From NCBI RefSeq assembly GCF_009193255.1, contig NZ_WACG01000003.1:1-64000 (forward strand): a stretch of 64,000 bases of DNA, given 5' to 3'. Below, piece after piece: positions 1,263-16,118 of this stretch (position 1 is its first letter; the number at the start of each line of letters is the position of its first letter). The position numbers and the translations under genes are program-made. The notes under the pieces are model-generated. The model had not been told where the DNA came from, did not search any database, and saw nothing but the letters and a program-made list of their open reading frames with translations. Source of the stretch: Arthrobacter koreensis (lineage in GTDB: Bacteria > Actinomycetota > Actinomycetes > Actinomycetales > Micrococcaceae).

Positions 1263-1317
1263 ACATCCACGCTAGCAGTGGCTCCGGCTGCCCGGTGAGC
1301 GGTGCTCCTGGATTGGC

Positions 1318-1971
1318 TCAGCGCTTCCCCAAACGGGTTGCCGAACGGAGCACGGCCCGGTCCCGGATGGCCAGCATGGACCGCCGGACGGATGCCCAGT
1401 AGACGGCGTCGAGAGGAAGCGAGGTCAGGGCACCGGGACGCCGGAAGCCGTACTGGAAACGGGCACGCACCACCAGCAGGGTCTGCCCAGGCCGCAGAGG
1501 TTTCAACAGCCAGAGCCAGGTGGACCGGCCGTCCCCGTTCGCCCACAGCATCCAGTCCCGGGGCTGGACTTCCTTGATCCGCAGGCGGTGCCCGGTTCCG
1601 GTGCTCAGCAGGTCTCCGATGTCCAGGTCCCGCAGCTGCGGGACGGCCCGGTCAGCCTCCCGCTGGTCCGGCAGGCCCACCCGGTCCAACACGAACCAAC
1701 CGGCCCGGCCGTGCCCTATCCGGTTCAGGAACGGCCAGACGTCCGCCGCGGGTGCCGGAATGAGGATGCTGCGGGTGTACTGCAGCACGGGGCCGGTAAG
1801 GACCGCATCCCCGGGCATCCGCGGGCCGGCCCCCGCTTCGGTGCGCCGGCGCAGCGGCCGGACGAGCCGGAAGTAGACACCCGCGGCCGATCCTGCGGCC
1901 GCTGCGGCCGCCAGGACCCTGCGGTACGGCCGGCCAGCCGGGCCAAGCGCATCGCGCCAACCTGCCGCCAA
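1318..1971 (-). CDS. SRPBCC-family protein, possibly interrupted near its start
   Basis: From about residue 65 (YTRSILIPAPAADVWPFLNR) the protein has the opening strand and helix of an SRPBCC/START-like ligand-binding fold, followed by the usual antiparallel sheet and a C-terminal helix. Residues 15-40 are Ala/Arg-rich with a short hydrophobic stretch. The open frame begins at a TTG (1971) with no good ribosome-binding site. An ATG at 2010 preceded by AAGGAG at ideal spacing lies upstream in the same frame, but a TAG at 1978-1980 stops it after ten codons. Either the gene restarts at the TTG or a nonsense change has damaged it. The ligand is unknown. Confidence 0.7.
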   Translation of the reverse strand: MAAGWRDALGPAGRPYRRVLAAAAAAGSAAGVYFRLVRPLRRRTEAGAGPRMPGDAVLTGPVLQYTRSILIPAPAADVWPFLNRIGHGRAGWFVLDRVGLPDQREADRAVPQLRDLDIGDLLSTGTGHRLRIKEVQPRDWMLWANGDGRSTWLWLLKPLRPGQTLLVVRARFQYGFRRPGALTSLPLDAVYWASVRRSMLAIRDRAVLRSATRLGKR

Positions 1972-2082
1972 AAGCCGCTAGCCCTGTTCCGGGATGGAGG
2001 GGACGTTCATGGGCACTCCTTCGCCGTTGCCGTGCCCCTGATGATAGTCCCGAGGCACCGGTGTCCGGCACCGGCTGCGCGG

Positions 2083-2874
2083 TTATAGCCCGTCGGGTTT
2101 GGTTACCACCGTGTGGGTCGCGTGGTCATACAGGAAGGTCACGGGCCCTCCCGCGTGCCCCATCTGGTAGTTGGCGCCGTCGAAGTGCGCGCCCTCACCG
2201 TAGTTCTCGTCCCAGCTGCGGTTCAGCGCAGCCTTGAACTCGTAGCTCCCCGCAGGCAGGTCAACGCTGAGTTTCCACAGTTCATCGCTGCGGTCGAAGC
2301 CCAGCTGGACGGCGTCGGATGAGGGATCCCAGTCCTCACCGCCGAGCGCGGAACCGAACGTTCCGGGCACTGCGACGGCGTTCGGCTGGGGGAAGGACGG
2401 TCCGTCGTAGTGCTCGTCGGCGTGCGCACCGTGGACCGACGCTGCCGGTTCGGCGGCGGCGTCGGAGACCACCAGGGCCTCCTCCAGCACGGCTTCGCTG
2501 TGCGCCTCTGCCTTTGTCACTGCCGTGACCGAGTGCTCGCTGCCGCTGAGAGCAGCGTGCAGGTGTTCAACATCGGGGAAGTCGGAGAGCGCGGAGCGGC
2601 CCTCGGAGGTGATGCTCCACCCGGCGCGGCCTTCCTTCAGGATCCAGCCCGCCTTGACCAGTTTGGTGCTGGCCGTAACCAGCGCCCGTTCGCCGCGGGC
2701 GACGCCGCTGGCCAGCAGCTCCGCTTCAGTGCCTTCTAGCGGAACCTGTTCCAGTGCCTGGCGCAGCACGTCCGCCCGTGATGTCTTCTTCTCCGCTGAC
2801 GGGTCCTGGCGCGCCAGGACTTCCAGGACGGCCTTGAGCCGCAGGGCAGTGTTCTCGACGCTCTTCTTAGGCAA
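2083..2874 (-). CDS. Winged-helix (Mrr-N-like) protein with C-terminal X25/pullulanase-type domain
   Basis: The TTG start at 2874 has AAAAGGA about eight bases upstream. Residues 1 to about 95 resemble the winged-helix domain found at the N-terminus of Mrr-type restriction proteins: helices, then a wing around KAGWILKEGRAGWSITSEGR. A variable Ala/Glu linker follows. Residues from about 165 to 255 (GTFGSALGGEDWDPSSDAVQ, then a strand-rich part with SYEFKAALNRSWDENYG) match the X25 module of bacterial pullulanases, a starch/glycogen-associated immunoglobulin-like domain. No catalytic glycosidase domain is present, so it is better seen as a DNA- or glycan-binding regulator than an enzyme. The role is unknown. 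Confidence 0.75.
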   Translation of the reverse strand: MPKKSVENTALRLKAVLEVLARQDPSAEKKTSRADVLRQALEQVPLEGTEAELLASGVARGERALVTASTKLVKAGWILKEGRAGWSITSEGRSALSDFPDVEHLHAALSGSEHSVTAVTKAEAHSEAVLEEALVVSDAAAEPAASVHGAHADEHYDGPSFPQPNAVAVPGTFGSALGGEDWDPSSDAVQLGFDRSDELWKLSVDLPAGSYEFKAALNRSWDENYGEGAHFDGANYQMGHAGGPVTFLYDHATHTVVTKPDGL

Positions 2875-2915
2875 CGTGCGGGTCCTTTTCTTGGGGTGGC
2901 TTCCGCTGCCCGAGC

Positions 2916-3686
2916 CTAACGGGCCGGGGCAGCGGTTGGAAAGACGGTGGTCCCGGGCGCGGTGATCCGCTCCAGGTGCCGGGGATCTGCGGTGCGGAGC
3001 GCGGCGTACCTGCCGTAGGCGGCAAGAAGGGACGCCTCGGCCCCGGCGACGGTGAGCCCGGGACGCAGGTCCTCGGCGGCCCCTGCCGTGGATGGATCCC
3101 AGTCCAGGCCCAGGGCGTCATACACGGCGGTAAGGACTCCGCGCAGCGGTGCGGAGTCCTCGATGACAACCACCGAGGAAAAGAGCCAGGCACCGGAGAC
3201 TACGCGCTGCGCGGTACCCACGAGTTTGACCCGGGCTTCGGTTCCCCCGTGGACGCTGTACTCGCCCGGGCAGTACTCGCCGGGGATCTCGCCGACGCCT
3301 GCTGGTACGCCGGCGTGCTGCAGGGCTCCGGCGAGCAGCTGCGCGAAGTCAGCAAAGCGCGCCAGCGAGTGCCTGACGGCGTCGGCTTCGGGTTCTATGT
3401 GGTCAAGGACCAGACAGCCCTCGTGGTAGGCGGCCGCCCGCCCGCCGGCCTTGCGGACCAGGGGCTCGAAGCCCAGGTCCCGGCAGGCCGCGGCGGCGTC
3501 GGGAAATCCGGGCAGGCGGGCATCGCGCTGCCCGAAGGCCACGGTGGGACGCGGCTGGTAGATCCGCAGCGACGGACCCAGCTCGCCGCCGCGGGCGGCT
3601 GAGAGCAGGTCGAGGGCGTGCTGCAGGTCTCCGGCGGCGCCGAAGGATTTTTCCTGCCGGTAGACGTCCAGCACGCGTGCTCCCAC
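2916..3686 (-). CDS. Biotin/lipoate A/B protein ligase-family protein
   Basis: The protein is 256 aa. It has the family's RKAGGRAAAYHEGCLVLDH substrate-loop region (about residues 78-96) and the conserved lysine in RVKLVGTAQRVV (about 152-163), as in lipoate-protein ligase A-type enzymes. These attach lipoate or octanoate to E2 or GcvH domains, or transfer it between carriers. The GTG start at 3686 lies one base after the stop codon of the upstream thioesterase gene, so the two are probably translationally coupled. The exact acyl substrate and acceptor cannot be read from sequence. Confidence 0.8.
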   Translation of the reverse strand: MGARVLDVYRQEKSFGAAGDLQHALDLLSAARGGELGPSLRIYQPRPTVAFGQRDARLPGFPDAAAACRDLGFEPLVRKAGGRAAAYHEGCLVLDHIEPEADAVRHSLARFADFAQLLAGALQHAGVPAGVGEIPGEYCPGEYSVHGGTEARVKLVGTAQRVVSGAWLFSSVVVIEDSAPLRGVLTAVYDALGLDWDPSTAGAAEDLRPGLTVAGAEASLLAAYGRYAALRTADPRHLERITAPGTTVFPTAAPAR

Positions 3687-3689
3687 CGG

Positions 3690-4475
3690 TCAGTTCCGTC
3701 CCAGCGGACGGACCGTGAGGATCTGTTCGCTGCGTCCGAAGGGCCCGGACTCGTCGTGCAGTACCGAGGACGTCAGGCCGATTCCGTCCGTACCGAAACT
3801 GACCCGTGTATCCAGCCCGAGCCATTGTCCCGCAGGCCGGCGGTAGAGATGGATCTGCAGGTCCACGTTGGGGAACATCCAGCTGTCGCCTCCCGGCGGG
3901 ACGCGCGCGGCAATGCCGTTGGCGGCGTCGACCAGGCCGAGGAGCCGCACTGTGGAAGGCGTCTGCACGCCGTCGAGCATTTCTAACGGCGAGCGCACCC
4001 ACACCTGGCCGCGTCCGGGCCGCAGTCCCGGAACCGCCCGGAACTCGAGGCCGTTGATGAAGTCCCCCGGCCAGGCGGTCATGCCTTCGAATCCTTCAGC
4101 CTGCCCGGGGCCGGGCATTGGCTCGTCTTCCACAGCAGCAACCTCGGTGGTGTCTCCAAGCGCGAGGCGCCAGGCCGTGGCACGCACGGCTGTCCGTCCG
4201 CCGGCCGTCAGCTCGGCCTCCAGCAGTTCGATGGTGCGTCCGGGACGGATGACCTTGGTGGTGACATCAAAGACGCCCTGCGGGATGACGCCGAGGATTT
4301 CGAAGCTGACCCGTGCCAGCCGCATCCCGGGACGGGGATCGGCCTCTTCCAGGCAGTGCACCAGCAGCCCGGCTACCGGCGCCATATGCTGCTCGTCCTC
4401 GTTCCAGGCACCCTGCGTGTGATGGGTTGATTCGAAAGTCCCCTCACCCAGTGAGCGGTAGTACGATTCGGCCAC
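3690..4475 (-). CDS. Thioesterase-family (TesB-like double hotdog) protein
   Basis: This 261-aa protein has the layout of acyl-CoA thioesterase-like double hotdog proteins. The first hotdog half covers about residues 15-115 (HMAPVAGLLVHCLEE, then RPGRTIELLEAEL). The second covers about 130-255 and ends in RVSFGTDGIGLTSSVLHDESG, typical of the family. It probably hydrolyses an acyl-CoA in the cytosol. The GTG start at 4475 has GGAGG at good spacing. It precedes the lipoate-ligase-like gene with no gap, suggesting linked acyl-group chemistry; that link is inference. Confidence 0.8.
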   Translation of the reverse strand: MAESYYRSLGEGTFESTHHTQGAWNEDEQHMAPVAGLLVHCLEEADPRPGMRLARVSFEILGVIPQGVFDVTTKVIRPGRTIELLEAELTAGGRTAVRATAWRLALGDTTEVAAVEDEPMPGPGQAEGFEGMTAWPGDFINGLEFRAVPGLRPGRGQVWVRSPLEMLDGVQTPSTVRLLGLVDAANGIAARVPPGGDSWMFPNVDLQIHLYRRPAGQWLGLDTRVSFGTDGIGLTSSVLHDESGPFGRSEQILTVRPLGRN

Positions 4476-4663
4476 TTATCCTCCCGGCGCGTCCTGGAAT
4501 GTGCGTACTCAGGCTATCCTGCCCGCGGCCCCGCCACGGTGCCGGCCCCTTCCCCGTGTCTCCGCGGCGGTGTTGAATGGCCCGTGGAGCAAACCTTGCA
4601 TGAGCGGGCGACTCCAGCCTGACCCTTGCACCCCTGACCCTTCCACCGAGGAACCGAGGAACC

Positions 4664-5632
4664 ATGAAGTACACGCATCTGGGCCGCGCCGGCCTGCAGG
4701 TCTCCCGCCTCTGCCTGGGCACCATGAACTTCGGCCCCAAGACTCCGGAGGACCAGGCGCACGGCATCATGGATTCGGCGCGTGAGTCCGGAATCAACTT
4801 CTTTGACACGGCGAACGTGTACGGCTGGGAGAACAAAGGGCTGACCGAGGAGATCATCGGGCGCTGGTTCGCCAAGGGCGGCGGACGGCGTGAGTCGACT
4901 GTTCTTGCCACGAAGCTTTACGGGTCCATGGGGCCGGGGCCCAACCAGACCTTCCTCTCGGCGCTGAACATCCGGCAGGCGCTGGATGCCAGCCTGAAGC
5001 GGCTGCAGACGGACTACATCGACCTGTACCAGTTCCACCACATTGACAGGAATACCCCGTGGGACGAGATCTGGCAGGCCATGGAAACCGCGGTTGCCCA
5101 GGGCAAGATCATCTACAACGGGTCCAGCAACTTTGCCGGCTGGAATATCGCCCAGGCCCAGGAAAGCGCCCGGCGGCGCAATTTCGCCGGCCTGATCTCG
5201 GAACAGAGCATCTACAACCTGGTCAACCGGTCCGTGGAGCTGGAAGTAATTCCTGCGGCGCAGGAGTACGGGCTGGGCCTCATCCCCTGGTCTCCGCTGC
5301 AGGGCGGTCTGCTGGGCGGCATCCTGAAGTCCCAGGAGGACGGTGGCCGGCGTGCGGAGGGACGGGTCCAGGAGCTGCTGGCAAAGCACCGGGAACAGAT
5401 CCAGGCGTATGAGGACCTCGCGGCTGAGCTGGAGATTGAGCCCGGGATCCTCGCCCTGGCCTGGCTGCTGCACCAGCCCGCGGTCAGCGCCCCGATCGTT
5501 GGTCCGCGCGTCATGGGCCAGCTCGACGACGCCCTGGCCGCCCTGGAGGTGGAACTGGAGGACGCCGCGCTGCGGAAACTGGACGAGATCTTCCCCGGCC
5601 ATCAGCCGGCTCCGGAGGACTACGCCTGGTAG
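4664..5632 (+). CDS. Aldo/keto reductase
   Basis: This is a 322-aa NADPH-dependent oxidoreductase with a TIM-barrel fold. The catalytic tetrad is visible as D48, Y53, K84 and H125/H126 (DTANVYG, ATKLYG, YQFHH). The long insertion after K84 and the NKGLTEEIIG motif fit the AKR11/YdhF-YghZ-like soluble reductases. The substrate, a small carbonyl compound, cannot be assigned. It starts at ATG 4664 with GAGGAACC upstream. The gene stands alone and converges on the SRAP gene with about 15 bases between the stops. Confidence 0.88.
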   Translation: MKYTHLGRAGLQVSRLCLGTMNFGPKTPEDQAHGIMDSARESGINFFDTANVYGWENKGLTEEIIGRWFAKGGGRRESTVLATKLYGSMGPGPNQTFLSALNIRQALDASLKRLQTDYIDLYQFHHIDRNTPWDEIWQAMETAVAQGKIIYNGSSNFAGWNIAQAQESARRRNFAGLISEQSIYNLVNRSVELEVIPAAQEYGLGLIPWSPLQGGLLGGILKSQEDGGRRAEGRVQELLAKHREQIQAYEDLAAELEIEPGILALAWLLHQPAVSAPIVGPRVMGQLDDALAALEVELEDAALRKLDEIFPGHQPAPEDYAW

Positions 5633-5647
5633 ATCCTTCCGCCGGAC

Positions 5648-6361
5648 CTAGTCCGCTGCCGGTTCCGCGGGACGGATCAGCTGCGGACCGTTGTTCCTCA
5701 CCGAGTTGACTTCGCTGGACACTACGCGCGGGGTGAGGACCGGTTCGGGCATCGCATCCAGCAGGGTCGCGATTGCCTCGGCGTCCGTCAGCTGAGGGTC
5801 CAGCCATTTGGAGTAGAGGTCCCTGGGCACCACCAGCGGAGTCCGGTCGTGGATGTGCCCGAGTTCGTCGGCCGCCTCGGTGGTAATGATGGTGACGCTG
5901 AGCAGCCACTTGTGCTCGTCGTCGTCGGGCAGGTTGGGGTCGGGCCAGAATTCGTAGAGTCCGGCGAAGGCAATCGGATCAGGAACCGTGGGGGAAAGGT
6001 AGGTCGGGATCTTTCCGTCCTCGGTCTTTTCCCACTCGTAGTAGCCGTCTGCGGGCACCAGCGCCCGTCTCTTCACCGCCGCCTTGCGGAACGCGGGCTT
6101 CTCCAGGATGGTCTCCCGGCGGGCGTTGATCATCCTGGATCCCACCTTGGGGTCCTTTGCCCACACCGGCACCAGGCCCCATTTGGCTGTGGCCAGGCGG
6201 CGCTGCGTGCCGTCCGGGCCGCGGCGTTCCGTGATGATGCGCACATCATCCGTCGGGGCTATGTTCCAGGACGGTCCCACGTCCTCCCCCACCACCTGGT
6301 CCGCCGCGAAAGCCGAAACCAGGTCCGACGTGGCCCGGGCCATCACATATCGTCCGCACAT
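5648..6361 (-). CDS. SRAP-domain protein (YedK/HMCES family)
   Basis: Members of this family form a covalent thiazolidine crosslink with abasic sites in single-stranded DNA and protect them during replication. The catalytic Cys must be residue 2 after Met removal, so I place the start at ATG 6361 (MCGRYVMA), not three codons upstream. Also visible are the SWNIAPT segment (N33), the MINARRET segment (N79), E109 in DGYYEWE and H171 in GHIHDRTPLVV. The length of 237 aa is normal. A SOS box lies 70 bases upstream in the divergent promoter region, consistent with damage induction. Confidence 0.93.
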   Translation of the reverse strand: MCGRYVMARATSDLVSAFAADQVVGEDVGPSWNIAPTDDVRIITERRGPDGTQRRLATAKWGLVPVWAKDPKVGSRMINARRETILEKPAFRKAAVKRRALVPADGYYEWEKTEDGKIPTYLSPTVPDPIAFAGLYEFWPDPNLPDDDEHKWLLSVTIITTEAADELGHIHDRTPLVVPRDLYSKWLDPQLTDAEAIATLLDAMPEPVLTPRVVSSEVNSVRNNGPQLIRPAEPAAD

Positions 6362-6430
6362 GGACAGCATTGTGCCGCACTTCGGCGGCGGAACCCAGTG
6401 CAGTCGTTCCTCGCCTACCGGCTAAAAGAT

Positions 6431-6446
6431 TCGAACGTATGTTCTA
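6431..6446. promoter_or_regulatory. SOS box (LexA operator)
   Basis: TCGAACGTATGTTCTA matches the actinobacterial LexA operator with GAAC-N4-GTTC half-sites. It differs by one base from the box before umuD (8778-8793). It lies between the SRAP gene (minus) and a small gene on the plus strand that starts eight bases after it, so it could control both. Confidence 0.88.
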
Positions 6447-6454
6447 CTTAAACC

Positions 6455-6799
6455 ATGGATCCTCAGGCTGCGGCGCGGCTGGCGGCCAGGTATGCCAGGC
6501 GCGCGGAACCCATCGGGCTGACTCCCGAAGAACTTGATTTTGACCACTTTCCGCCCACCACGGCCATGCCCGCCATCCCGGTGTGGGCGTGGATCCGCTT
6601 TCCGGGCTGCGCAGAGCACGTTGCCGGCGAAACCTGCACCTGGTCAGCGAAAGCGGTCCAGGTGCTGTGGGAAGACGCCGGCGTCAGGCGCTCCACCTGG
6701 GTGTGGGCATCGGCGGTTTCCCGGCGCTCCAGCGGCCGGTCCCGGACCGCGCTTCGCGAGAGGACTCAGGCTTCGGGGAGTAAAAATGGAAGAACCTAG
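6455..6799 (+). CDS. Small uncharacterised protein behind a SOS box
   Basis: I do not recognise a family. The protein is 114 aa. Residues 1-85 have a protein-like composition (LTPEELDFDHFPP, then Trp-rich segments VWAWIRFPGC and WVWASAV, with Cys at about 51 and 61); the last 30 residues are basic and low-complexity. The ATG lies only eight bases after the LexA operator and has no clear ribosome-binding site, so the transcript may be leaderless or nearly so. Frames overlapping the second half reduce certainty about the C-terminus. Its position suggests a damage-inducible protein next to SRAP; the function is unknown. Confidence 0.6.
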   Translation: MDPQAAARLAARYARRAEPIGLTPEELDFDHFPPTTAMPAIPVWAWIRFPGCAEHVAGETCTWSAKAVQVLWEDAGVRRSTWVWASAVSRRSSGRSRTALRERTQASGSKNGRT

Positions 6800-6832
6800 T
6801 TCCGGTTTCCAGCAGTAGAAAGGTCCAGGCAC

Positions 6833-6979
6833 GTGAACGCCCCGTGCACCTGCATCCGCTCTGCCGATCCCGCAACCGGCCGGATCGGCGTCGCCGTCTA
6901 TGACCCGTTTTGCCGCCAGCGGATGCACCGCATCAGCGGCTCCACCCTGCGCGAGCCTAGCTACGGTTCCAAGCATTAG
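6833..6979 (+). CDS. Microprotein, 48 aa, Cys/Arg-rich
   Basis: A short frame starts with GTG at 6833, with GAAAGG about nine bases upstream, and ends at TAG 6977-6979. The product starts with NAPCTCIRSADPATGRIG and has a CxC pair near residues 5-7 and a third Cys near residue 27 (DPFCRQRMHRISG). The composition and ribosome-binding site make it a plausible real gene in the same transcript as the SOS-boxed gene just upstream. There is no known family and no functional assignment. Confidence 0.5.
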   Translation: MNAPCTCIRSADPATGRIGVAVYDPFCRQRMHRISGSTLREPSYGSKH

Positions 6980-7024
6980 CCTCCCGCCGGGTGTGTGAGG
7001 GCCCCCGGCGCACATCGAGCCGTC

Positions 7025-7417
7025 TCAGTCCTGGCTCATGGAGGCGATCTGCAGGAGATTCCCGCAGGTGTCGGAAAAGACCGCGGTGGTCACCGGACCC
7101 ATGTTCGCCGGTGGCTGCGTGAATTCGACGCCGAGAGCCAGCATCCGCTCGTACTCCTTTGCCACGTCATCCACTGCGAAGGAATTGAAGGGAATCCCGT
7201 CACCCGCCAGTGCTTCCTTGAAGGGGGCCACGGCAGGATGCGAGCTGGGCTCCAGCAGCAGTTCGACGCCGCCCTCCTCCCCCGGATTCCCCACAGTCAG
7301 CCAGCGGGCGCCTCCGGCTGGCTGGTCCTGCCGCTTCTCGAATCCGAGAACACGGGTGTAGAAATCCAGTGCCTTTTCCTGGTCATCAACAAAGATGCTT
7401 GCCGTCACAATCCTCAT
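7025..7417 (-). CDS. VOC-family (glyoxalase-fold) protein
   Basis: This 130-aa protein has two beta-alpha-beta-beta-beta halves typical of the vicinal oxygen chelate superfamily, opening with RIVTASIFVDDQEKALDFYT and closing with VTTAVFSDTCGNLLQIASM. Members include glyoxalases, dioxygenases and small-ligand binding proteins, and the sequence does not discriminate among them. The start is ATG 7417, whose first bases overlap the stop of the ArsR gene (ATGA). The two are therefore an operon, and the VOC protein is the likely effector gene of the regulator. Confidence 0.85.
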   Translation of the reverse strand: MRIVTASIFVDDQEKALDFYTRVLGFEKRQDQPAGGARWLTVGNPGEEGGVELLLEPSSHPAVAPFKEALAGDGIPFNSFAVDDVAKEYERMLALGVEFTQPPANMGPVTTAVFSDTCGNLLQIASMSQD

Positions 7418-7743
7418 GGCTCCGGTCCTTCCGCTTCGTTTCGTTCGGGTTGCCGCGGCGGCAGCGGGAGTGCCAGGGTGCCAATCCATCCGGCAACTCC
7501 CAGGGTCAGCGGCTCAGGGCAGAGGTGGTGCCGCCGGTAGCGGCCGTCTGCTTCCACCCTGACCAGTCCGGCTGATTCGAGGACCGCCAGATGCTTTGAG
7601 ACTCCCTGCCGCGTAATACCTATTGCGTGATTGCTAATCAGCCGGACGCACAGTTCATACAGCGTCTGTCCCGCCTGGGATGCGAGTTCCTCCAGCAGGA
7701 TCCGGCGGACCGGATCAGCCAACGCCCGGAAGACAGCATCCAT
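7414..7743 (-). CDS. ArsR-family transcriptional regulator
   Basis: The protein is 109 aa with a winged helix-turn-helix of the ArsR type: FRALADPVRRILLEELA, a recognition helix in RQGVSKHLAVLESAGLV and the wing in EADGRYRRHHLCPEPL. There is no metal-binding ELCVCDL motif (ELCVRL is present instead), so it resembles the metal-independent subgroup that pairs with VOC or SRPBCC genes. It starts at ATG 7743. An inverted repeat 14-29 bases upstream is a candidate self-operator. It is co-translated with the downstream VOC gene. Confidence 0.88.
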   Translation of the reverse strand: MDAVFRALADPVRRILLEELASQAGQTLYELCVRLISNHAIGITRQGVSKHLAVLESAGLVRVEADGRYRRHHLCPEPLTLGVAGWIGTLALPLPPRQPERNEAEGPEP

Positions 7744-7756
7744 GCAGACACCATAG

Positions 7757-7772
7757 GCAACCGGCAGGTTGC
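7757..7772. promoter_or_regulatory. Candidate ArsR operator (inverted repeat)
   Basis: GCAACC-N4-GGTTGC is a perfect dyad just upstream of the ArsR start codon at 7743, flanked by CCAT and ATGG. The position suits an autoregulatory operator. Binding is inferred from position only. Confidence 0.5.
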
Positions 7773-7805
7773 ATGGAAGGGGTTGGCGGAAAACTCAGCG
7801 GGCGG

Positions 7806-7955
7806 CTAGGACTGGACGTGGTTCCGGCGGTGGCGGTGCTCCAGCAGCAGGCGGGCTCCGTTGAGGATCAGGGTCTCCACCGGAACTTCCTGTTCTGCGG
7901 CCAGCTCTTCCAGCTCCCGGCCCAGCTTGGGCGGGATGTACACCTCGACGTTCAT
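7806..7955 (-). CDS. Small ribbon-helix-helix-like protein, 49 aa
   Basis: This short gene starts at ATG 7955 (MNVEVYIPPKLGRELEELAA) and ends in a basic tail (RHRRNHVQS). One N-terminal beta strand with two helices resembles the CopG/Arc ribbon-helix-helix fold of small DNA-binding proteins, including antitoxins. No toxin-like partner is adjacent: the upstream neighbour on this strand is the uridine-kinase-like gene, about 70 bases away. The call is by fold appearance only. Confidence 0.6.
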   Translation of the reverse strand: MNVEVYIPPKLGRELEELAAEQEVPVETLILNGARLLLEHRHRRNHVQS

Positions 7956-8025
7956 GCGCTTAACGGTATCGCCGCTGCGGAGCCAGTCCGAACCGGGCAC
8001 CTCTCCGGGTGCGCAGGCCTCTGCC

Positions 8026-8727
8026 TCAGCTGTTACCCCCGCCGGCATTCCGGAAGGACTGCGGCGGAGCCGGACGGACCAGCCGCGGCGCCGCGGCGTC
8101 GTTGTAATCCACCACCACTGACGCGGCAGCGCATGGATTGCAGGCCGCGAGGTAGATCTGCTGGCCGCCGACGTAGCGGCGATTCGACGGCGCCAGCGGG
8201 TCAGGATCGGCCCCGTCCCGGAGTTCCATTCTTCGGCAGGATGTTTCGAAAGACACATCCAGGAAAACCGTCGCGTCCCAGATGCCGGACAGTTCCCGCC
8301 GGTGCAGGAACAGTCCATCCACCAGCACCACCGCCGGATTGGGCACCGCGAGTTCCGGACCGCAGACTTGGTGGTCTGAGGCCAGGTCGTGGCTGGCCGC
8401 ACGGTAGCGTCCCGAACCGCCGGGGCGCAGGGGCTCCACCGCCAGCCGCCGGAAGGCAGCATAGTCATAGGAGTCTTCGAAGAATCCGAGCGGCGATGCC
8501 CTGCCCTGCCGGTAGCGCTCGCGGCTGGGCCGGTGGAAACCATCAAGCGAAATCCTGATCACCGGCCAGCGGAGGCGGGCGCCCAGGGCGTCCGCGAAGG
8601 TTGATTTGCCCGCCCCATCCACCCCGTCCACGCCGATGAAAACCCTGCGTCCCGCTGAGGGTACCGGCAGCGCCGCCGCGACCAGCCGGAGTACCGAGTC
8701 CGCCATCGGCGTGAAAAGTGGTTCCAC
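8026..8727 (-). CDS. Uridine kinase-like P-loop protein
   Basis: This 233-aa protein has a Walker A motif in GVDGVDGAGKST (about residues 32-43), the phosphoribulokinase/uridine kinase signature SLDGFHRP (the D-x-F/Y-H motif) and a Walker B-like strand in PAVVLVDGLFLH. It probably phosphorylates a nucleoside or related small molecule with ATP or GTP. A GTG start at 8727 is used; a downstream ATG eight codons later is possible, since neither has a strong ribosome-binding site. It diverges from umuDC but is not clearly part of the SOS group. Confidence 0.82.
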   Translation of the reverse strand: MEPLFTPMADSVLRLVAAALPVPSAGRRVFIGVDGVDGAGKSTFADALGARLRWPVIRISLDGFHRPSRERYRQGRASPLGFFEDSYDYAAFRRLAVEPLRPGGSGRYRAASHDLASDHQVCGPELAVPNPAVVLVDGLFLHRRELSGIWDATVFLDVSFETSCRRMELRDGADPDPLAPSNRRYVGGQQIYLAACNPCAAASVVVDYNDAAAPRLVRPAPPQSFRNAGGGNS

Positions 8728-8777
8728 AGCACCGCACTCTATCTTCCGGACGGCCGCACGGTGCTAGTGTTGGGTAA

Positions 8778-8793
8778 TCGAAAGTATGTTCTA
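8778..8793 (+). promoter_or_regulatory. SOS box (LexA operator) upstream of umuDC
   Basis: TCGAAAGTATGTTCTA lies 23 bases before the umuD start. It matches 15 of 16 positions with the box at 6431-6446 and fits the actinobacterial LexA consensus with one imperfect half-site. LexA control of umuDC is well established in other bacteria. Confidence 0.85.
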
Positions 8794-8816
8794 AAAGCAG
8801 CGGAGGTGCCCGGCGG

Positions 8817-9230
8817 ATGCCTGTCTTCAATGTCTCCGGCAGTTCACGCTCCGCTTCGGTGTCCGACGCCGATGCCGCCTCCGGCTTTCCCAGTCCCTCA
8901 CGTGATTATTTCGACGGGCGCATCGACCTCAACCGGCATCTGATCCGGGACGTTACGTCCACCTACATCGTCCGGGTTTCCGGGGACTCAATGTCCGGCA
9001 CCGGAATCAGTGACGGAGACGAACTCATTGTGGACCGTTCCCTGACACCCCGTGACGGCTCAGTGGTTGTCGCCGTCCTGGACGGGGAGCTGACAGTGCG
9101 CCGCCTCAGGCTCACCGGCCGGGGCATTGTCCTGGCCGCTGAAAACGCGGGGTACCGGGACGTAGCTGTTCCGGACCCGGCGGCGCTGACCATCTGGGGT
9201 GTCGTGACCCGCTGCCTCCACCATGTCTGA
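8817..9230 (+). CDS. umuD: UmuD-like S24 peptidase-fold protein lacking the catalytic lysine
   Basis: The 137-aa protein aligns along its length with Umu[19 protein letters not shown] contains the place where UmuD cuts itself (before Gly), the nucleophile is S58 in SGDSMSG, and the closing strand is WGVVTR. In E. coli UmuD the dyad is S60-K97. Here, at the same spacing, the lysine position is R95 (ELTVRRLRL), and the whole protein has no lysine. Known family chemistry requires this lysine as the base, so autocleavage is expected to be lost or slow (inference). GGAGG precedes the ATG by about 11 bases, and the end overlaps umuC by eight bases. Confidence 0.9.
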
Positions 9231-10548
9231 GCATCCGGCCGGTGCCGGTGTCCGCTCCCCCGCAGGGCAGCTCCACCGGATCGCCCTGGTGGATGTCAAC
9301 AGTTTCTATGTCTCCTGCGAGCGCGCCTTCGACCCCCGGCTGGAAGGCGTGCCCGTCGTCGTGCTGTCAAACAATGACGGCTGTGTGGTGGCCCGTTCCG
9401 ATGAGGCGAAAGCCCTGGGAATCAAGACCGGGGAGCCCTGGTTCAAGCTGGCCGAAGCTGCACCTCATCTTGGCCTGATCCAGCGTTCAAGCAACTACGA
9501 ACTTTACGGAGACCTGAGTTCCCGGGTCATGGAACTGCTGGGCCGGTACGCCCTGTGGCAGGAGGTCTACTCCATCGACGAGTCCTTCCTGGGCCTGGCC
9601 GGCACGCCGCGTGAACTCGATGCGCAGGGCGCGCGGATCCGCGCCGCGGTAGCCCGCAATACCGGCCTGCCCGTCTGCGTGGGCATCGGGCCCACCAAGA
9701 CGCTGGCCAAGTTCGCCAACCGGATCGCCAAGCAGAACGGGCACCTGAACGGCGTCTGCAACCTGGACACCATGGACCCCGGTGCCGTAGCGACGATCAT
9801 GTCCCGGGTGCCGGTCACCGGGCTCTGGGGCGTGGGAGCCAAGCTGGGCAAACGGCTCGAAGCGATGGGCATCCGGACCGTGGCGGACCTCAAAGCCGCC
9901 GATCCGTCTGTGATCCGCAGCCGTTTCTCCGTGACGCTGCAGCGGACCGTCCTGGAACTCAACGGCACGCCGTGCCTGCCGCTGGAAGAGGAGCGCGCGG
10001 AACGGCAGCAGCTGATCTTCTCGCGCAGCTTCTCCGTGCCGGTGACAACTGCGGCTGAGATGAGGCAGGTGATGAGCATCTATGCCCAGCAGGCGGCTTC
10101 CCGGCTGCAGCGCGAACACCAGCAGGCACGGGTACTCACCGCCTACGCCGGGACGTCCCACTTCAGCCACAAAGCGGCGTCGTTTCCTTCCGTCACCGTC
10201 AAACTGCAAAGCCCCACCTCGGACCCGGTGGTACTGACCCGTGCGGCGGTGGGCGCGCTCGAAGACCAGATCGTTGAAGGCGTCCCCTACACCAAGGCGG
10301 GAGTAATGCTCAGCGGCCTCTCCGACGCGGGAGCCCAGCCGGTCCTCGATGCCTTCGTCCCGGAGCAGGAACACCGCCACCTTGGGGAGCTGCTGGGCAA
10401 GGTCGCGGACAAATACGGCTCCGCCAGCATAGGACTTGGCGTGGCGGGGATGCCCAGTGCCCGCCCGGAATGGACCATGTCCCGCAAGTACTCCTCGCCG
10501 CGCTACACCACGGTCTGGGGTGAGCTTCCGGTGGTCACAGCACGCTGA
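9223..10548 (+). CDS. umuC: UmuC, Y-family DNA polymerase (Pol V catalytic subunit)
   Basis: This 441-aa protein is a translesion polymerase. The palm acidic residues are visible as D24 in [11 protein letters not shown] and D119/E120 in [10 protein letters not shown], with the steric-gate tyrosine Y29. The [19 protein letters not shown] finger segment and a helix-hairpin-helix ([17 protein letters not shown]) follow, then the little-finger domain and a conserved C-terminal tail of the UmuC branch. The ATG at 9223 lies inside the end of umuD, so the two proteins are coupled at translation. It is under the upstream SOS box. Full length, with no damage seen. Confidence 0.95.
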
Positions 10549-10583
10549 GCCGGAACCGTGGACAGGGCCCGGCTGCGCCCGGA

Positions 10584-12179
10584 TCAGTCGTCGCGGTCCG
10601 GCTGCGTCAGGCGCAGTTCCTCCACGTCCAGCCGCGTCTCCAGCATCCGCAGCACCCGGTCATCAATGGTGCGCTCGTCCCGCAGCGCCAGCAGTACCGT
10701 GCGTTTGCGCTCCAGCAGCGCCAGCCGCAGCTCCGTCTCCTGCTGCCAGTGTGCCAGCGCCGGCGCCGGTTCCCCCGCCGGCTGGGCGGCTCCGTCCGCC
10801 CGCAGGACTTCCAGGTGGTGCCGGTACTCATGGGTCACCCGTTCCACCACCCGGCCGTCCGTGCCCAGCCTGGCCGCGAGTTCCGGCAGGGAAGACAGGC
10901 CGTCCTCGGCGGCCCGCACTTCTGCCAGGCGTCGTTCCTCCTCCAGCCGCGTGTCCTGGGGCAGCCGTGCCCACCGGACGATCACCGGCAGCAGCGGGCC
11001 CTGCACCGTAAGCGTCACCAGGATGACCCCTGCTGTCACGAAGATGATCTGCCCCCGGTCCGGGAACGGCGTACCCGCGGCGGTGAGGGCCGGAACGCCC
11101 AGGGCCGCTGCCAGGGACACCGCACCACGGAAGCCCGCCATACCGCTGAGGACACGCGAGCGGTTACTGACCCGGCGGAGTTTCTGCGACGGACGCCGAT
11201 CGATCATCCTGATCATGTAGGTGGTGACGAACAGGAAGGCGATGCGCACCACCACCAGCACGATCGACACTGCGGCGACCGCCACCAGGCCCACGGCGAT
11301 CTGCGGCCCGCTCAGCAGCCGCACTGCCACGTGCAGCTCGATGCCGATCAGCACGAAGAGCGCGGCGTTGAGCATGAACGTGGAGAAGGACCAGAAGGCC
11401 TGCGACTGGCGGCGGGCCAGCGCGGCCGTCACCCGCGGACCGGCCTGGCTCATGATCAGGCCAACGACGACGACGGCCAGCACCCCGGACCCGCCCGTCT
11501 CCTCAGCGAGCAGGAAGGCCGCGAAGGGGGTGATGAAGGTGGCGACGTTGTTCAGCACGGGATCCTGGATCCGGCGGCGCACCCAGATCCCGGCCCACGC
11601 GACCAGCAGCCCCGAGACGATGCCGCCCCCGTAGGACAGTGCCAGGATCCCTGAGATGGAAAGCGGCGTATAGTCGCCGTCACCCGCCACGATCCCCACG
11701 GCAACGGCGTAGATCACCAGGGCCGTGCCGTCGTTGATGAGGCTCTCGGCCCGCAGCACCGTGACATTGCGGTGCGGCAGGCTGCGGGCCAGGACGGCCA
11801 CGGCCGTGGCATCGGTGGGAGCCAGCGCGGCGCCGAGGACCCAGGCCGGGCCCCAGGGCATGCCCAGGGCGTTGGCCGTGAAGGCAACGGCCGCCGCAGT
11901 CACCAGGACCAGCCCGGTGCCGGAGAGGACAATGCCGCGCAGGTTGCTGCGGATCTCCCGCAGGGACGTGGTGAGGCTCTCCCAGTACAGCAGGGCCGGA
12001 AGAAAGAGCAGCAGTACCACTTCCGGCGGCAGTTCAACCTGCCGGAACGCCGGCACGAACCCCAGGGCCACTCCCCCGGCCAGCAGCAGCAAAGGGGCGC
12101 CAATGCGGAACCGTTCCGCGCCCAGCGAGCAGGCCAGGATGGCAACCCCCAGGGCCACTACGAGTTCCAGACCTAGCAC
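10584..12179 (-). CDS. Na+/H+ antiporter (CPA1/NhaP type)
   Basis: The 531-aa membrane protein has about twelve hydrophobic segments over residues 1-400. It includes the CPA1 ion-binding region (LGAALAPTDATAVAVLARSL and RAESLINDGTALVIY), followed by a soluble C-terminal helical tail of about 120 residues that is rich in Arg and Glu. It would exchange cations for protons across the plasma membrane, aiding pH and salt balance. The GTG at 12179 with GGAAGG seven bases upstream is chosen. Longer frames would run into the GNAT gene and add a Pro/Arg-rich stretch not seen in the family. Confidence 0.88.
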   Translation of the reverse strand: MLGLELVVALGVAILACSLGAERFRIGAPLLLLAGGVALGFVPAFRQVELPPEVVLLLFLPALLYWESLTTSLREIRSNLRGIVLSGTGLVLVTAAAVAFTANALGMPWGPAWVLGAALAPTDATAVAVLARSLPHRNVTVLRAESLINDGTALVIYAVAVGIVAGDGDYTPLSISGILALSYGGGIVSGLLVAWAGIWVRRRIQDPVLNNVATFITPFAAFLLAEETGGSGVLAVVVVGLIMSQAGPRVTAALARRQSQAFWSFSTFMLNAALFVLIGIELHVAVRLLSGPQIAVGLVAVAAVSIVLVVVRIAFLFVTTYMIRMIDRRPSQKLRRVSNRSRVLSGMAGFRGAVSLAAALGVPALTAAGTPFPDRGQIIFVTAGVILVTLTVQGPLLPVIVRWARLPQDTRLEEERRLAEVRAAEDGLSSLPELAARLGTDGRVVERVTHEYRHHLEVLRADGAAQPAGEPAPALAHWQQETELRLALLERKRTVLLALRDERTIDDRVLRMLETRLDVEELRLTQPDRDD

Positions 12180-12261
12180 GGGCCAACCTTCCGTCGGGCA
12201 CTTACGGCTGGAGGGACTCCTTAAGTGTGCCGAGCGCGGGCAGCCCCGTCGAGGGTGCGGC

Positions 12262-12864
12262 CTAGGCGGATACAGCCTCGACGGGTGCGTCCGGAGAGCG
12301 CAGCATTGACCACACCGGCGGGCCGCCGTCGGGCATCTCCGAGACCGCCCACACCTCGAACCCGAACCGGCGGTAGAAAGCCACGTTGGATTCCGAGGAG
12401 GTTTCAAGGGCTATGGTCCGTCCGGGACCGGCGGCCAGCACGGATTCCAGAAGCCCGGTACCCTGCCCGCTGCCCTGTTCCCGGGGAGCGACGCCGATGG
12501 TCGCCAGGGTCCAGGCCCCGGGCGGCGGCTCAGGCAGGGCATGCGCCAGGTTCCGCACCGATTCGCCGTGCAGGGACGCGAGTTTCTCCTGCAGCTCAGG
12601 GGTCAGGGGCGCGGGGTCGAGCTCCGCCAGGTCCGGCGGAAGCAGGACGGCGACGGCGGTTCGGCCCTCATTGACCCACACCTCTCCGTGCGGCAGGGCC
12701 AGATGCTCCAGGTAGAGCCGCTGGATGGCGGCCGTCCGGGCCTCCCGGCGCTCGCTGTCTACGGTCCAGCGGGTCCAGGCATAGTCCGCGAAGGCCTCCG
12801 CCAGGACCGCTGCCAGGTCCGTTATCTCCGCTGCGGAGGCGTGCTCCAGCCGTACTGCTCCCAT
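12262..12864 (-). CDS. GNAT-family N-acetyltransferase
   Basis: This 200-aa protein shows the GNAT acetyl-CoA loop in IGVAPREQGSGQGTGLLESV (about residues 125-144; Q/R-x-x-G-x-G/A type) and the closing SNVAFYRRFGFEV motif (about 160-172). The acceptor substrate is unknown. ATG 12864 with GGCAGGA just upstream is preferred over a more distant frame start. The gene lies 80 bases upstream of the antiporter on the same strand; co-transcription is possible. Confidence 0.87.
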   Translation of the reverse strand: MGAVRLEHASAAEITDLAAVLAEAFADYAWTRWTVDSERREARTAAIQRLYLEHLALPHGEVWVNEGRTAVAVLLPPDLAELDPAPLTPELQEKLASLHGESVRNLAHALPEPPPGAWTLATIGVAPREQGSGQGTGLLESVLAAGPGRTIALETSSESNVAFYRRFGFEVWAVSEMPDGGPPVWSMLRSPDAPVEAVSA

Positions 12865-12924
12865 GGTCCTGCCTTCTGTGTGTCTGTGTGTTTCACGTTC
12901 GTGCCCGGGCAACCGGGCGGGGTT

Positions 12925-13521
12925 CTACTGCGCGCGGTTCCTGGCCCGGCTCCACCAGCGACGGCGCCACCAGGGACGGCTCGGCTCGGGCGCCGGCTCG
13001 GGGGTAGCTGCACTGCCCCGCCGTTCCTGCCAGCGCTGCACTTCCAGTTCCACGTCCCGCAGTTTCGTAATGACGGGCGGGCCTCCCAGAAGCTGCCTGC
13101 GGGCTTCGATGATCCGCTGGTTGAATTCTTCCACGGTTTCCCTTACCTGCGCTGCGGAGGACCTGGCGTCCAGTACATTGTCCAGCTCCGCGTCCTCGAC
13201 CCGCAGCAGCAGGGCGGGCGGTCCCAGGCCGCTGATGTTCTCGCGCTGGATCAGCCCCTTGATCCACCAGTCGGGGTCGTTGGCTTCCGCAAGGTTCGGG
13301 AGGGGTTTTCCGGCGTACTGCAGGTTCTCGAATTCCCCGCGCAGCATGGCATCGCGGATCAGGTAGTCAGCCTTGTCAGCCGGATCCACCTGCTCCTTCC
13401 GCCGCCGCAGCGCCGTCTCCTCAGGCGTCTCGCCATCCGCTTCAGCAGGAACTCCTGCCGCACGTATCCTGGCGGCCCGTTCCATTCGGCGCCGGTAGGC
13501 GTCGGCCCCGCGGTTGCCCAT
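12925..13521 (-). CDS. DUF1992 / DnaJC28-like conserved-domain protein
   Basis: The protein is 198 aa. The core (about residues 50-130) carries the signature of the DnaJ homologue subfamily C member 28 conserved region: LIRDAMLRGEFENLQYAGKP, then WWIKGLIQRENI. The segment after it (NQRIIEARRQLLGGPPVITK) also fits. The C-terminus is basic and Trp/Arg-rich. No J-domain is present. The family has no settled function. The ATG at 13521 is used; both neighbours run on the same strand with short gaps. Confidence 0.83.
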   Translation of the reverse strand: MGNRGADAYRRRMERAARIRAAGVPAEADGETPEETALRRRKEQVDPADKADYLIRDAMLRGEFENLQYAGKPLPNLAEANDPDWWIKGLIQRENISGLGPPALLLRVEDAELDNVLDARSSAAQVRETVEEFNQRIIEARRQLLGGPPVITKLRDVELEVQRWQERRGSAATPEPAPEPSRPWWRRRWWSRARNRAQ

Positions 13522-13547
13522 TGCTGCGTGTCCTCCAGTTCCATTGG

Positions 13548-14672
<1,125 letters not shown>

Positions 14673-15152
14673 TCAGTCGACCTTCACCACTGTGCCGCCG
14701 GTCAGCCGAACGAGCTCCGCAAGGTTTGTCCGGAACACCGAATACGGCGTTCCCGCGGCGACCCACACAGCGGGATAGCCGCCCAGGTCCTCGTCGATGG
14801 CGGTTTCCACGGGCACGGGGTGCCCGAGGGGAGCAACGCCGCCGATCTCCTGGCCCGTTGCCTCCCGCACCTGCTCCGGTGTCGCCCGCCTGATCTTCTG
14901 CTTGCCCAGGCGCTGGGCCAGCGCCGCCGTGTCCACCCGGTGCGCACCGGACGTGATGACCAGGAGGGGCGCTGAGTCCGCCATGAACACCAGGCTGTTC
15001 CCAATCGCTCCCACCTCACAGCCCAGCGTCTGCGCAGCCTCGACGGCGGTCCGCGCGGATCCGTCCGTCACCACTACCTGCGCTGCCGATCCGCGCTCGG
15101 TAAGCGCCTGTTCAACCCGTGCCGACGCCGCGGCCCACTGGGGATTCTCCAT
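14673..15152 (-). CDS. YbaK/EbsC-family (prolyl-tRNA deacylase-like) protein
   Basis: The 159-aa protein belongs to the bacterial INS-like editing domains that hydrolyse mischarged tRNAs such as Cys- or Ala-tRNA(Pro). Visible features are GCEVGAIGNSLVFMADSAPL, VITSGAHRVDTAALAQRLG, the KIRRATPEQV segment and GGVAPLGHPVPV, which matches the conserved G-x-x-P-h/p-G loop. A clean ATG at 15152 opens the frame. Substrate choice among family members cannot be decided from sequence. Confidence 0.88.
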   Translation of the reverse strand: MENPQWAAASARVEQALTERGSAAQVVVTDGSARTAVEAAQTLGCEVGAIGNSLVFMADSAPLLVITSGAHRVDTAALAQRLGKQKIRRATPEQVREATGQEIGGVAPLGHPVPVETAIDEDLGGYPAVWVAAGTPYSVFRTNLAELVRLTGGTVVKVD

Positions 15153-15242
15153 GGCCGTGAGACTAGCAAAGCGCGGCGGAGCGGCGTCGTACTGTGTCCT
15201 CCCGGGACGGTATCTTTCCGGGACGGCGCCGTGCGGGCCGTG

Positions 15243-16118
15243 TCAGCTCCGGGTGATGGTTCCCGGATCGGGGCCGGCGCGGACACCGGTGTCCAGGGCG
15301 CTGATGTCGGACAGTTCGGCGGCGCTCAGGGAGAAATCGAAGAGGTCGATGTTCTCCGCGATCCGCTTGGGGGTCACCGATTTGGGAATCACGCAGATGC
15401 CCAGCTGGATCTCCCAGCGGAGGATCACCTGGGCAGGTGTCTTGTGGTGAGCCGCGGCGATGCGGACGATCACCGGGTCATGCAGCGGGTCCTTCGGCGC
15501 TGCCCCGGATCCGTGCCGCCAGTACCGGGTGACGCCGCCGATCGGCGACCATGCCTCGGTCAGGATACCGTTCTCCAGGTTGAAGGCGCGCAGCCCGGGT
15601 TCACTGAAATAGGGGTGCACCTCTATCTGGTTTACGGCCGGTACGACGTCGGTGCGCGCAAGCAGGTCACTGAGCTCTTCCGTCCCGAAGTTGCTCACCC
15701 CGATGGCCCGCACCCGGCCCTGTTCGTACAGGGTCTCAAGCGCCCGGTAGGAAGCTACGGTGAGGTCGAAGTCGGACGGCAGCGGCTGGTGGAGCAGGTA
15801 CAGGTCCAGCACGTCCAGGCCCAGCCTGGCCATGCTGGCGTCGAAGGCACGCAGGGCCGCGTCATAGCCGTAGTCATCAACCCAGAGCTTGGTGGTGATG
15901 AACAGTTCGGCCCGGTCGAAGCCGGACTGGGCGAGGGCAGCGCCAACTTCAGTTTCGTTGCGGTAGGCAGCTGCCGTGTCGATGAGCCGGTAACCGTTGG
16001 CCAGCGCGGTCTCCACCGCAACCGTGGTCTCCGCCGGGGCGCTTCGATAGACACCGAAGCCCACCGCATCCAGGACCACGCCGTTGTTCAGGGTCAGCTT
16101 GGGCATGATGGCATTCAT
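15243..16118 (-). CDS. Aldo/keto reductase (2,5-diketo-gluconate reductase-like)
   Basis: At 291 aa this is the short AKR5-type enzyme. The tetrad is D47, Y52, K77 and H110 (LIDTAAAYRNE, ITTKLW, LYLLHQP). IGVSNFG and VIPKSVTPKRIAENIDLFDF give the NADPH-binding C-terminal part of the barrel. It starts at ATG 16118 with TAGGAG six bases upstream. It is the third aldo/keto reductase in 12 kb, but the three belong to different subfamilies, so this is not a recent duplication. Confidence 0.9.
   Translation of the reverse strand: MNAIMPKLTLNNGVVLDAVGFGVYRSAPAETTVAVETALANGYRLIDTAAAYRNETEVGAALAQSGFDRAELFITTKLWVDDYGYDAALRAFDASMARLGLDVLDLYLLHQPLPSDFDLTVASYRALETLYEQGRVRAIGVSNFGTEELSDLLARTDVVPAVNQIEVHPYFSEPGLRAFNLENGILTEAWSPIGGVTRYWRHGSGAAPKDPLHDPVIVRIAAAHHKTPAQVILRWEIQLGICVIPKSVTPKRIAENIDLFDFSLSAAELSDISALDTGVRAGPDPGTITRS

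What the first reader, a model, noticed from the sequence alone, without database searches (positions are those of the whole stretch)
8817..9230. UmuD with no lysine: the self-cleavage dyad is broken
The serine nucleophile S58 is intact, but the residue matching E. coli K97 is Arg (R95) at the same 37-residue spacing, and the whole 137-aa protein has no lysine. UmuD must cut itself to UmuD' to activate Pol V. Here activation must use another route, be very slow, or be absent, while umuC appears intact.
Basis: partly seen in the sequence, partly recalled or inferred. Interest (0 to 1): 0.7.

Follow-up and report, generated by a model that had tools for sequence, protein, structure and literature searches.

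The report
UmuD lineage that lost self-cutting
In Arthrobacter and its relatives the protein that normally cuts itself to switch on an error-prone DNA-repair polymerase appears to have lost its cutting site while the polymerase gene stays intact, so a textbook activation step is probably done without.

Summary
UmuD (8817-9230, +) has S58, Arg (codon CGC) at the E. coli K97 position, and no lysine. It is no sequencing error: the first umuD of all 29 genus genomes searched has R95, and dN/dS is low. Among 193 distinct family UmuDs, 129 are S/K, 45 S/R, 17 A/R, 2 G/R. The serine is missing only in R-types; residue 58 changes at least 5-6 times. R-types have also lost the uniform Ala-Gly cut site, the hydrophobic arm and pocket residues, but keep the UmuD' N-arm, the C-terminus and, mostly, an adjacent umuC. 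Other UmuDs sampled (57 viral, 6 plasmid, P1 HumD, 10 of another family) are S/K. Best reading: a pseudo-peptidase UmuD lineage working full-length like UmuD', controlled by LexA and RecA. No assay was run. The window protein keeps its other pocket residues, so slow Arg-aided cutting is not excluded. R-type UmuDs are also nearly lysine-free (K/(K+R) 0.03, against 0.30 in UmuC of the same loci) in a genome with a Pup-proteasome; escape from pupylation is a bold, untested idea. New variant of a known kind.

The parts
8778..8793 (+). SOS (LexA) box TCGAAAGTATGTTCTA upstream of umuD
   Evidence: 13 of 16 match to the recalled actinobacterial consensus; shuffled upstream regions reached at most 11 (2 of 193). 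The genome's own recA box scores 13 and its lexA boxes 14.
8802..8806 (+). GGAGG Shine-Dalgarno-like site before the ATG of umuD
   Evidence: Read directly; flagged as SD for the ATG.
8817..9230 (+). umuD, R-type, 137 aa
   Evidence: AlphaFold2 model matches UmuD' 1umu by Foldseek, E 2.1e-9.
8817..8882 (+). N-terminal arm (residues 1-22), hydrophilic, ending DAAS before G23; E. coli UmuD is cut after C24, before G25
   Evidence: arm hydropathy and P1 residue differ between R-type and K-type; arm alignments.
8988..8990 (+). S58 codon TCA (nucleophile, kept here; Ala or Gly in 19 of 64 R-type proteins)
9099..9101 (+). R95 codon CGC (position of the catalytic Lys)
9223..10548 (+). umuC, 441 aa, overlaps umuD by 8 nt; catalytic D24, D119, E120 intact
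   Evidence: the catalytic residues are intact in 141 of 141 umuC rows that were near-complete and stop-free (186 umuC matches in all).

Best explanation
The gene is an intact umuDC operon with a LexA-type box whose UmuD is a pseudo-peptidase. One or two ancestors in the Micrococcaceae replaced the catalytic Lys by Arg. Self-cleavage was then no longer selected for: the Ala-Gly cut site, the hydrophobic arm that has to lie in the active site, pocket residues and, in several branches, the nucleophile serine were lost. The body of the protein and the faces that become UmuD' stayed conserved. I infer that the full-length protein, its arm free rather than docked, pairs with UmuC as UmuD' does, so that Pol V is regulated by LexA (transcription) and RecA (mutasome assembly) without the cleavage checkpoint. 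Shown here: sequence states, their phylogenetic pattern, selection, gene neighbourhood. Inferred: absence of cleavage in vivo, free arm, UmuD'-like activity.
For: (1) R95 is fixed: first umuD of 29 of 29 genus genomes, CGN codons in 63 of 64 R-types. (2) Ser is missing only with Arg: S/K 129, S/R 45, A/R 17, G/R 2, A or G with K 0, of 193 distinct proteins; residue 58 needs at least 6 changes on the UmuD tree built without columns 58 and 95, 5 on the UmuC and joint trees; parsimony does not give their direction. (3) Cut site and arm: P1 is Ala in 128 of 129 K-types, but S 24, A 17, R 10, T 7, M 3, H 2, I 1 in 64 R-types; median hydropathy of the last 12 arm residues 1.93 against -0.33. (4) Pocket residues: T93 129/129 to 15/64, D89 129/129 to 29/64, N110 127/129 to 7/64, Y113 125/129 to 23/64. 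(5) Region-specific: mean conservation of 89-115 falls from 0.83 to 0.56, while the UmuD' N-arm 23-45 (0.88, 0.89) and the C-terminus 125-137 (0.82, 0.89) do not fall. (6) Purifying selection: median dN/dS of umuD 0.067 in the window group and 0.047 in the A58 genus group, K-types 0.078; umuC 0.072, 0.081, 0.131. (7) The own genome has no second UmuD (E up to 10: 4 matches, the others being LexA and two weak ones); its LexA keeps Ser and Lys. (8) Precedent: E. coli UmuD with an undocked arm (3A, or truncated UmuD 18) is not cut and partly mimics UmuD' (PMC5342242, abstract and passages).
Against: No activity was measured. The window protein itself keeps D89, T93, N110 and Y113, so of its proteolytic parts only Lys, the cut-site residues and the arm are changed. 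In E. coli the uncut UmuD(K97A) keeps UmuC at the membrane (PMC4552617, passages), and non-cleavable variants give greatly reduced or low mutagenesis (PMC5342242); a free arm must overcome this. AlphaFold gave low confidence for the arm in both the R-type and a K-type control, so it does not show a free arm. Arm, cut-site and pocket contrasts are not corrected for shared descent. Other R-type groups have higher umuD dN/dS (0.083, 0.125, 0.152, 0.182) than K-types (0.078), so some general relaxation is possible. 6 of 45 S/R and 7 of 17 A/R loci have no SOS box above the shuffled range (11 or less), as have 28 of 129 K-types. In 10 of 64 R-type loci no umuC match lies next to umuD; in nine of these genomes umuC lies 3-21 kb away and in G227 none was found.
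Confidence: 0.55

Rival explanations
1. Residual catalysis: Arg95 acts as a poor base or electrostatic helper, and UmuD with S58 still cuts itself slowly, delaying Pol V.
For: S58 is kept in 45 of 64 R-types and in all 8 of the window group; the window group keeps Y113 (8 of 8) and mostly N110 (7 of 8). I recall, without a call, that LexA K156R was studied as an impaired mutant; one search listed one paper with that word, which I did not open.
Against: Arg stays in all 19 proteins whose Ser is gone, so there at least it is not kept for catalysis. P1 is no longer Ala or Cys in 47 of 64 R-types and the arm is hydrophilic. T93 is already A, V or I in 4 of 8, and D89 changed in 4 of 8, of the window group.
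Confidence: 0.13
2. Manager only: the uncut UmuD2C holds UmuC back and acts as a damage checkpoint; mutagenic Pol V activity is absent in these bacteria.
For: In E. coli uncut UmuD has roles of its own (PMC4552617 and PMC5342242, passages).
Against: Binding of the polymerase III alpha subunit by uncut UmuD is strongest with an arm long enough to dock (PMC5342242); the R-type arm has lost the hydrophobic stretch. UmuC's catalytic residues and low dN/dS are kept.
Confidence: 0.15
3. Cut in trans: another protease trims the arm, making UmuD' without the dyad.
For: The arm is predicted with low confidence, as expected of a disordered stretch, and varies in sequence; 2 of 29 genus genomes carry a second full-length umuD, and the one that was held, L033, is K-type.
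Against: 27 of 29 genus genomes have no second full-length umuD (G018 has a 46-residue fragment match). Residues just before G23 are not shared across R-types.
Confidence: 0.11
4. Artefact or decaying gene: sequencing error or pseudogene.
For: None beyond the odd residue.
Against: CGC differs from AAA and AAG at every base; R in 29 of 29 genomes; dN/dS 0.067.
Confidence: 0.01

Closest known systems
E. coli UmuD / Pol V (UmuD'2C)
   Same: Fold, family, SOS box, conserved UmuD' N-arm, GDSM serine; operon order with umuC.
   Different: Catalytic Lys replaced by Arg; Ser instead of Cys before the cut; arm hydrophilic; Ser lost in related R-types.
Phage P1 HumD (a ready-made UmuD')
   Same: A UmuD relative that would not need cutting; LexA site annotated upstream; the record note says that it functionally complements E. 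coli UmuD'.
   Different: HumD starts at the UmuD' N-terminus (MGFPSP) and keeps Lys; here the arm is kept and the dyad lost. The gene after humD in the 901 bases read is phd, not umuC.
E. coli UmuD 3A and UmuD 18 (laboratory variants)
   Same: Arm undocked, not cut, partial UmuD' mimic (PMC5342242, passages); a natural counterpart of this state is what is proposed here.
   Different: Those keep Ser and Lys; here the dyad itself is gone.
Inactive members of the LexA/signal-peptidase fold (phage 186 CI; SipA of Streptococcus pyogenes)
   Same: Fold kept without the canonical catalytic residues (186 CI: PMC12984324, passages; both appear; that SipA lacks catalytic residues is recalled).
   Different: A repressor and a pilus factor, not polymerase subunits.

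Membership tests
UmuD (PRK10276 / PF00717) | Family profile above curated cut-off | tested here: met
   144.8 bits against 110; S24 84.6 bits against 23.3.
UmuD (PRK10276 / PF00717) | UmuD' fold | tested here: met
   AlphaFold2 mean pLDDT 80.5; best Foldseek hit 1umu, E 2.1e-9.
UmuD (PRK10276 / PF00717) | Operon with umuC under an SOS box | tested here: met
   8-nt overlap with umuC; box 13 of 16. LexA binding itself not tested.
UmuD as autoprotease | Nucleophile Ser | tested here: met
   S58; missing in 19 of 64 R-type proteins.
UmuD as autoprotease | Catalytic Lys | tested here: not met
   R95.
UmuD as autoprotease | Ala/Cys-Gly cut site in a hydrophobic arm | tested here: not met
   Ser-Gly, hydrophilic arm.
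UmuD as autoprotease | RecA-stimulated self-cleavage | not testable with these tools
   Needs purified protein.
HumD-type preformed UmuD' | No N-terminal arm encoded | tested here: not met
   22-residue arm after a GGAGG-preceded ATG. The only internal in-frame start before G23 is GTG at codon 15, without SD-like motif; at that place the 8 window-group loci have GTG 3, ATG 2 and no start codon 3.
UmuD 3A-like UmuD' mimic | Arm not docked on the body | tested here: inconclusive
   Hydrophobic arm residues lost, but AlphaFold arms are low-confidence in both types.

The most novel reading that the evidence does not exclude
The driver was not loss of cleavage but a purge of lysine. In R-type UmuDs nearly every lysine, the catalytic one included, became arginine or vanished (window group: 0 K and 105 R in 8 proteins, against 125 K and 248 R in their UmuCs), so that UmuD cannot be tagged by the genome's Pup ligase and cleared by its proteasome after damage. 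The bacterium would have traded a proteolytic on-switch for protection from a proteolytic off-switch. This would explain why the substitution is always Arg (64 of 64) and why Arg stays after the serine is gone.
Probability: 0.12. Interest if true: 0.85.

Novelty: new variant of a known kind. Interest (0 to 1): 0.6.

Why it matters
UmuD self-cleavage is a textbook step in switching on mutagenic Pol V. A lineage in which the dyad, the cut site and the hydrophobic arm were lost, with the Ser position changed several times over, while the polymerase gene is preserved, says that the checkpoint can be done without. It offers natural, apparently non-cleavable UmuDs for testing what the cut is for. 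If the lysine purge has to do with pupylation, it would tie Pol V control to the actinobacterial Pup-proteasome, which in Mycobacterium smegmatis removes RecA after damage (PMC8223512, passages). The NCBIfam model that the window protein passes would still name it 'autoproteolytic subunit'.

Tried and rejected
Sequencing error and pseudogene: rejected. UmuD' made directly from an internal start: the only in-frame candidate, GTG codon 15, has no SD-like motif, and at that place the 8 window-group loci have GTG 3, ATG 2, no start codon 3; rejected as a conserved device. A second, cleavable UmuD in the own genome: none found. LexA also broken: no, Ser and Lys present (L002). Rfam in 8000-11000: 0 matches. 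tRNA in 1-16000: none. AlphaFold contrast of R-type and K-type arms: both low confidence, no information. A single origin of Arg: the UmuD-only tree needs one change (support 81), but the UmuC tree and the joint tree (AU p 0.000175 against one R clade) need more. Two origins, or recombination between umuD and umuC, are both open; all are quick trees with some long branches.

Literature: (PubMed Central open-licence papers only, most seen as listings) showed no report of a natural dyad-less UmuD lineage. This does not prove that there is none, as most subscription papers are missing. One search was used for pupylation. PMC3901139 was looked at in passages and gave nothing decisive.

Rows and sampling: searches return at most 30 loci each; I chose 95 further places's list; one search says that more matches are not listed, so the weakest relatives were not read, and ranking by likeness to the window may favour R-types. 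L002-L004 (LexA and others) were dropped, and 21 of 214 loci as duplicates. L218-L232 lie outside the 193; some repeat loci already held, and among them R-types L229, L230, L232 (S/R) and K-type L231 are additional. Of 15 genomes of the other family with a match, 10 were read. The umuC rows were required to be near-complete and stop-free (141 of 193). The UmuC tree used 94 rows (K-types below L123 thinned to one in four). The joint tree used 73 rows: K-types below L123 thinned to one in six, near-identical S/R rows and five long-branch rows (L147, L174, L205, L209, L212) left out. The UmuC match of L191 is cut by the end of my fetched stretch; one search shows the gene complete.

Full report
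What is there. The 137-aa ORF at 8817-9230 (+) is UmuD by profile, by alignment to E. coli UmuD' and by predicted fold. It overlaps umuC (9223-10548) by 8 nt. A LexA-type box (TCGAAAGTATGTTCTA, 8778-8793, 13 of 16) stands before it, as good as the box before the genome's own recA (13) and close to those before lexA (14). The own genome also has a LexA with Ser and Lys, RecA and two further Y-family polymerase genes. S58 is intact; the position of E. coli K97 is R95; there is no lysine.

It is not an error. R95 is encoded by CGC, which differs from both lysine codons at every base, and R is found in the first umuD of all 29 genus genomes searched. The nearest named relatives are Arthrobacter gandavensis (97%) and A. 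citreus (96%). The gene upstream of the window's umuD (8026-8727) also stands there in 11 of 35 R-type loci with enough flank, all in the window group, and in 0 of 81 K-type loci; the downstream antiporter gene in 4 of 7 and 0 of 68, so in this group the R-type operon is inherited in place.

A lineage, not a single protein. From 214 loci of the family I kept 193 distinct UmuD proteins. At positions 58 and 95 they read S/K in 129, S/R in 45, A/R in 17 and G/R in 2; no protein with Lys lacks the Ser. On a tree made without these two columns R and K are separated by one change (support 81) and residue 58 needs at least six changes, all among R-types. The UmuC tree (94 rows) and a joint UmuD-UmuC tree (73 rows) place one R group (L138, L141, L156, L165, L172, L173) among K-types; an AU test rejects a single R clade (p 0.000175), with the reserve that long branches are present. 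Either Lys became Arg twice, or umuD and umuC recombined.

The rest of the cutting machinery decayed with it. The residue before the cut is Ala in 128 of 129 K-types but Ser, Ala, Arg, Thr, Met, His or Ile in the 64 R-types. The last 12 arm residues are hydrophobic in K-types (median hydropathy 1.93) and hydrophilic in R-types (-0.33). T93, D89, N110 and Y113, nearly invariant in K-types, vary in R-types. Mean conservation of residues 89-115 drops from 0.83 to 0.56, while residues 23-45 (which become the UmuD' N-arm) and 125-137 are as conserved in R-types as in K-types. These contrasts are not corrected for descent, and the K set holds many close relatives. The window protein is among the least decayed: it still has D89, T93, N110 and Y113.

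The gene is under selection. Median dN/dS of the core is 0.067 in the window group, 0.083 in the other S/R genus group and 0.047 in the genus group that has Ala for Ser; K-types have 0.078. Three other R-type groups have 0.125, 0.152 and 0.182. The arm evolves faster than the core in the window group (summed dN/dS 0.27 against 0.07), in the A58 group (0.29 against 0.05) and less so in K-types (0.15 against 0.08). The three catalytic acids of UmuC are intact in 141 of 141 near-complete rows. A umuC match lies next to umuD in 36 of 45 S/R, 16 of 17 A/R and 2 of 2 G/R loci. Of the ten exceptions nine are from one genus (g25) and one from g23; in nine of these genomes umuC sits about 3 to 21 kb away on the same strand, and in one (G227) none was found. 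In L177 (G/R) the umuC match is short and holds a stop, and in G137 (L207) umuC is in pieces.

Elsewhere the dyad holds in what I sampled. 57 distinct viral UmuDs (80 loci, hosts not checked), 6 plasmid ones (five from outside the family, one from Kocuria, which belongs to it) and P1 HumD all keep Ser and Lys. So do the 10 proteins read from 15 genomes of the only other family that matched (E up to 1e-14) among 396 genomes of the order, and the one additional UmuD from 393 genomes of the class (L248).

How it probably works. In E. coli, cutting is needed because the docked arm keeps UmuD in another state. Variants whose arm cannot dock (3A, or UmuD 18) are not cut and partly mimic UmuD' (PMC5342242, abstract and passages). 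In the Pol V model the UmuD' arm enters the UmuC cleft (PMC12926913, passages). R-type UmuDs have lost the hydrophobic character of the arm and keep the UmuD' faces. I therefore think the full-length protein serves UmuC directly and that control rests on LexA and RecA. Shown: sequence pattern, selection, gene neighbourhood. Inferred: no cutting, free arm, activity. The main counter-evidence is that E. coli UmuD(K97A) holds UmuC at the membrane (PMC4552617, passages), and that AlphaFold says nothing about the arm.

The lysine purge. R-type UmuD cores have K/(K+R) 0.032 against 0.303 in the UmuCs of the same 51 loci; K-types have 0.270 and 0.338 (90 loci). Leaving site 95 out, the 64 R-types hold 28 K to 611 R and the 129 K-types 229 to 931. 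In 51 of 51 R-type loci UmuD has the lower K/(K+R); so it has in 79 of 90 K-type loci, but weakly. The window group has 0 K in 8 proteins; the second R group has 0.050. Against an absolute purge: the A58 genus group carries 11 K in 8 proteins, 12 of the 64 R-types have Lys at position 79, and 8 of 48 mechanically chosen window ORFs also have a ratio of 0.06 or less. The genome has Pup, two Pup-ligase-family genes (PafA and Dop, as I recall) and two proteasome subunits in one cluster (C6:441288-446025); the ligase pair is in 11 of 11 genus genomes searched. Pup is attached to lysines (PMC10465538, start of abstract in the listing), and in Mycobacterium smegmatis RecA is pupylated and removed after damage (PMC8223512, passages). 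That UmuD escaped this system by losing its lysines is my most novel reading. It is untested; whether K-type genomes also have Pup was not checked, and if they do it counts against the idea.

Novelty. I found no report of such a lineage in the searches named in Tried and rejected. The parts are known kinds (UmuD, pseudo-peptidases of this fold, HumD as a ready-made UmuD'), so I call it a new variant of a known kind.

Noticed in passing
window 6431-6799 (+): A 114-aa ORF (6455-6799) with no Pfam or NCBIfam match stands 8 nt behind an SOS-like box (6431-6446, 14 of 16). It is found in 29 of 29 genus genomes, with a box of 13-15 of 16 at 8-9 nt before the ATG in 10 of 10 loci read: probably an SOS-induced protein of unknown function.
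   Followed up: partly
L163, L168, L195, L203, L204, L208, L210, L211, L214: umuD and umuC are separated by about 3-21 kb in these R-type loci. PMC6305408 (passages) describes XerC/XerD-bearing elements between umuC and umuD on Arthrobacter plasmids; whether these inserts are of that type was not checked.
   Followed up: partly
window 8817-8828 and relatives: The extreme N-terminus is conserved as x-[AP]-V-F in all 26 genus arms shown, before a variable linker: the R-type arm may carry a short partner-binding motif.
   Followed up: no
L033 (G001:C2), L060: K-type umuD with intact dyad is found on a plasmid of a relative (L060) and on the second contig of a genus genome beside an R-type copy on its first contig (L033); one search lists further Arthrobacter plasmids with umuD whose residues were not read.
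   Followed up: partly
L177; L207 (G137): In L177 the adjacent umuC match is short (20-130) and has a stop inside, in a genome whose UmuD has Gly for Ser58. In G137 umuC matches lie in pieces on several places, some with stops: possibly decaying operons.
   Followed up: no
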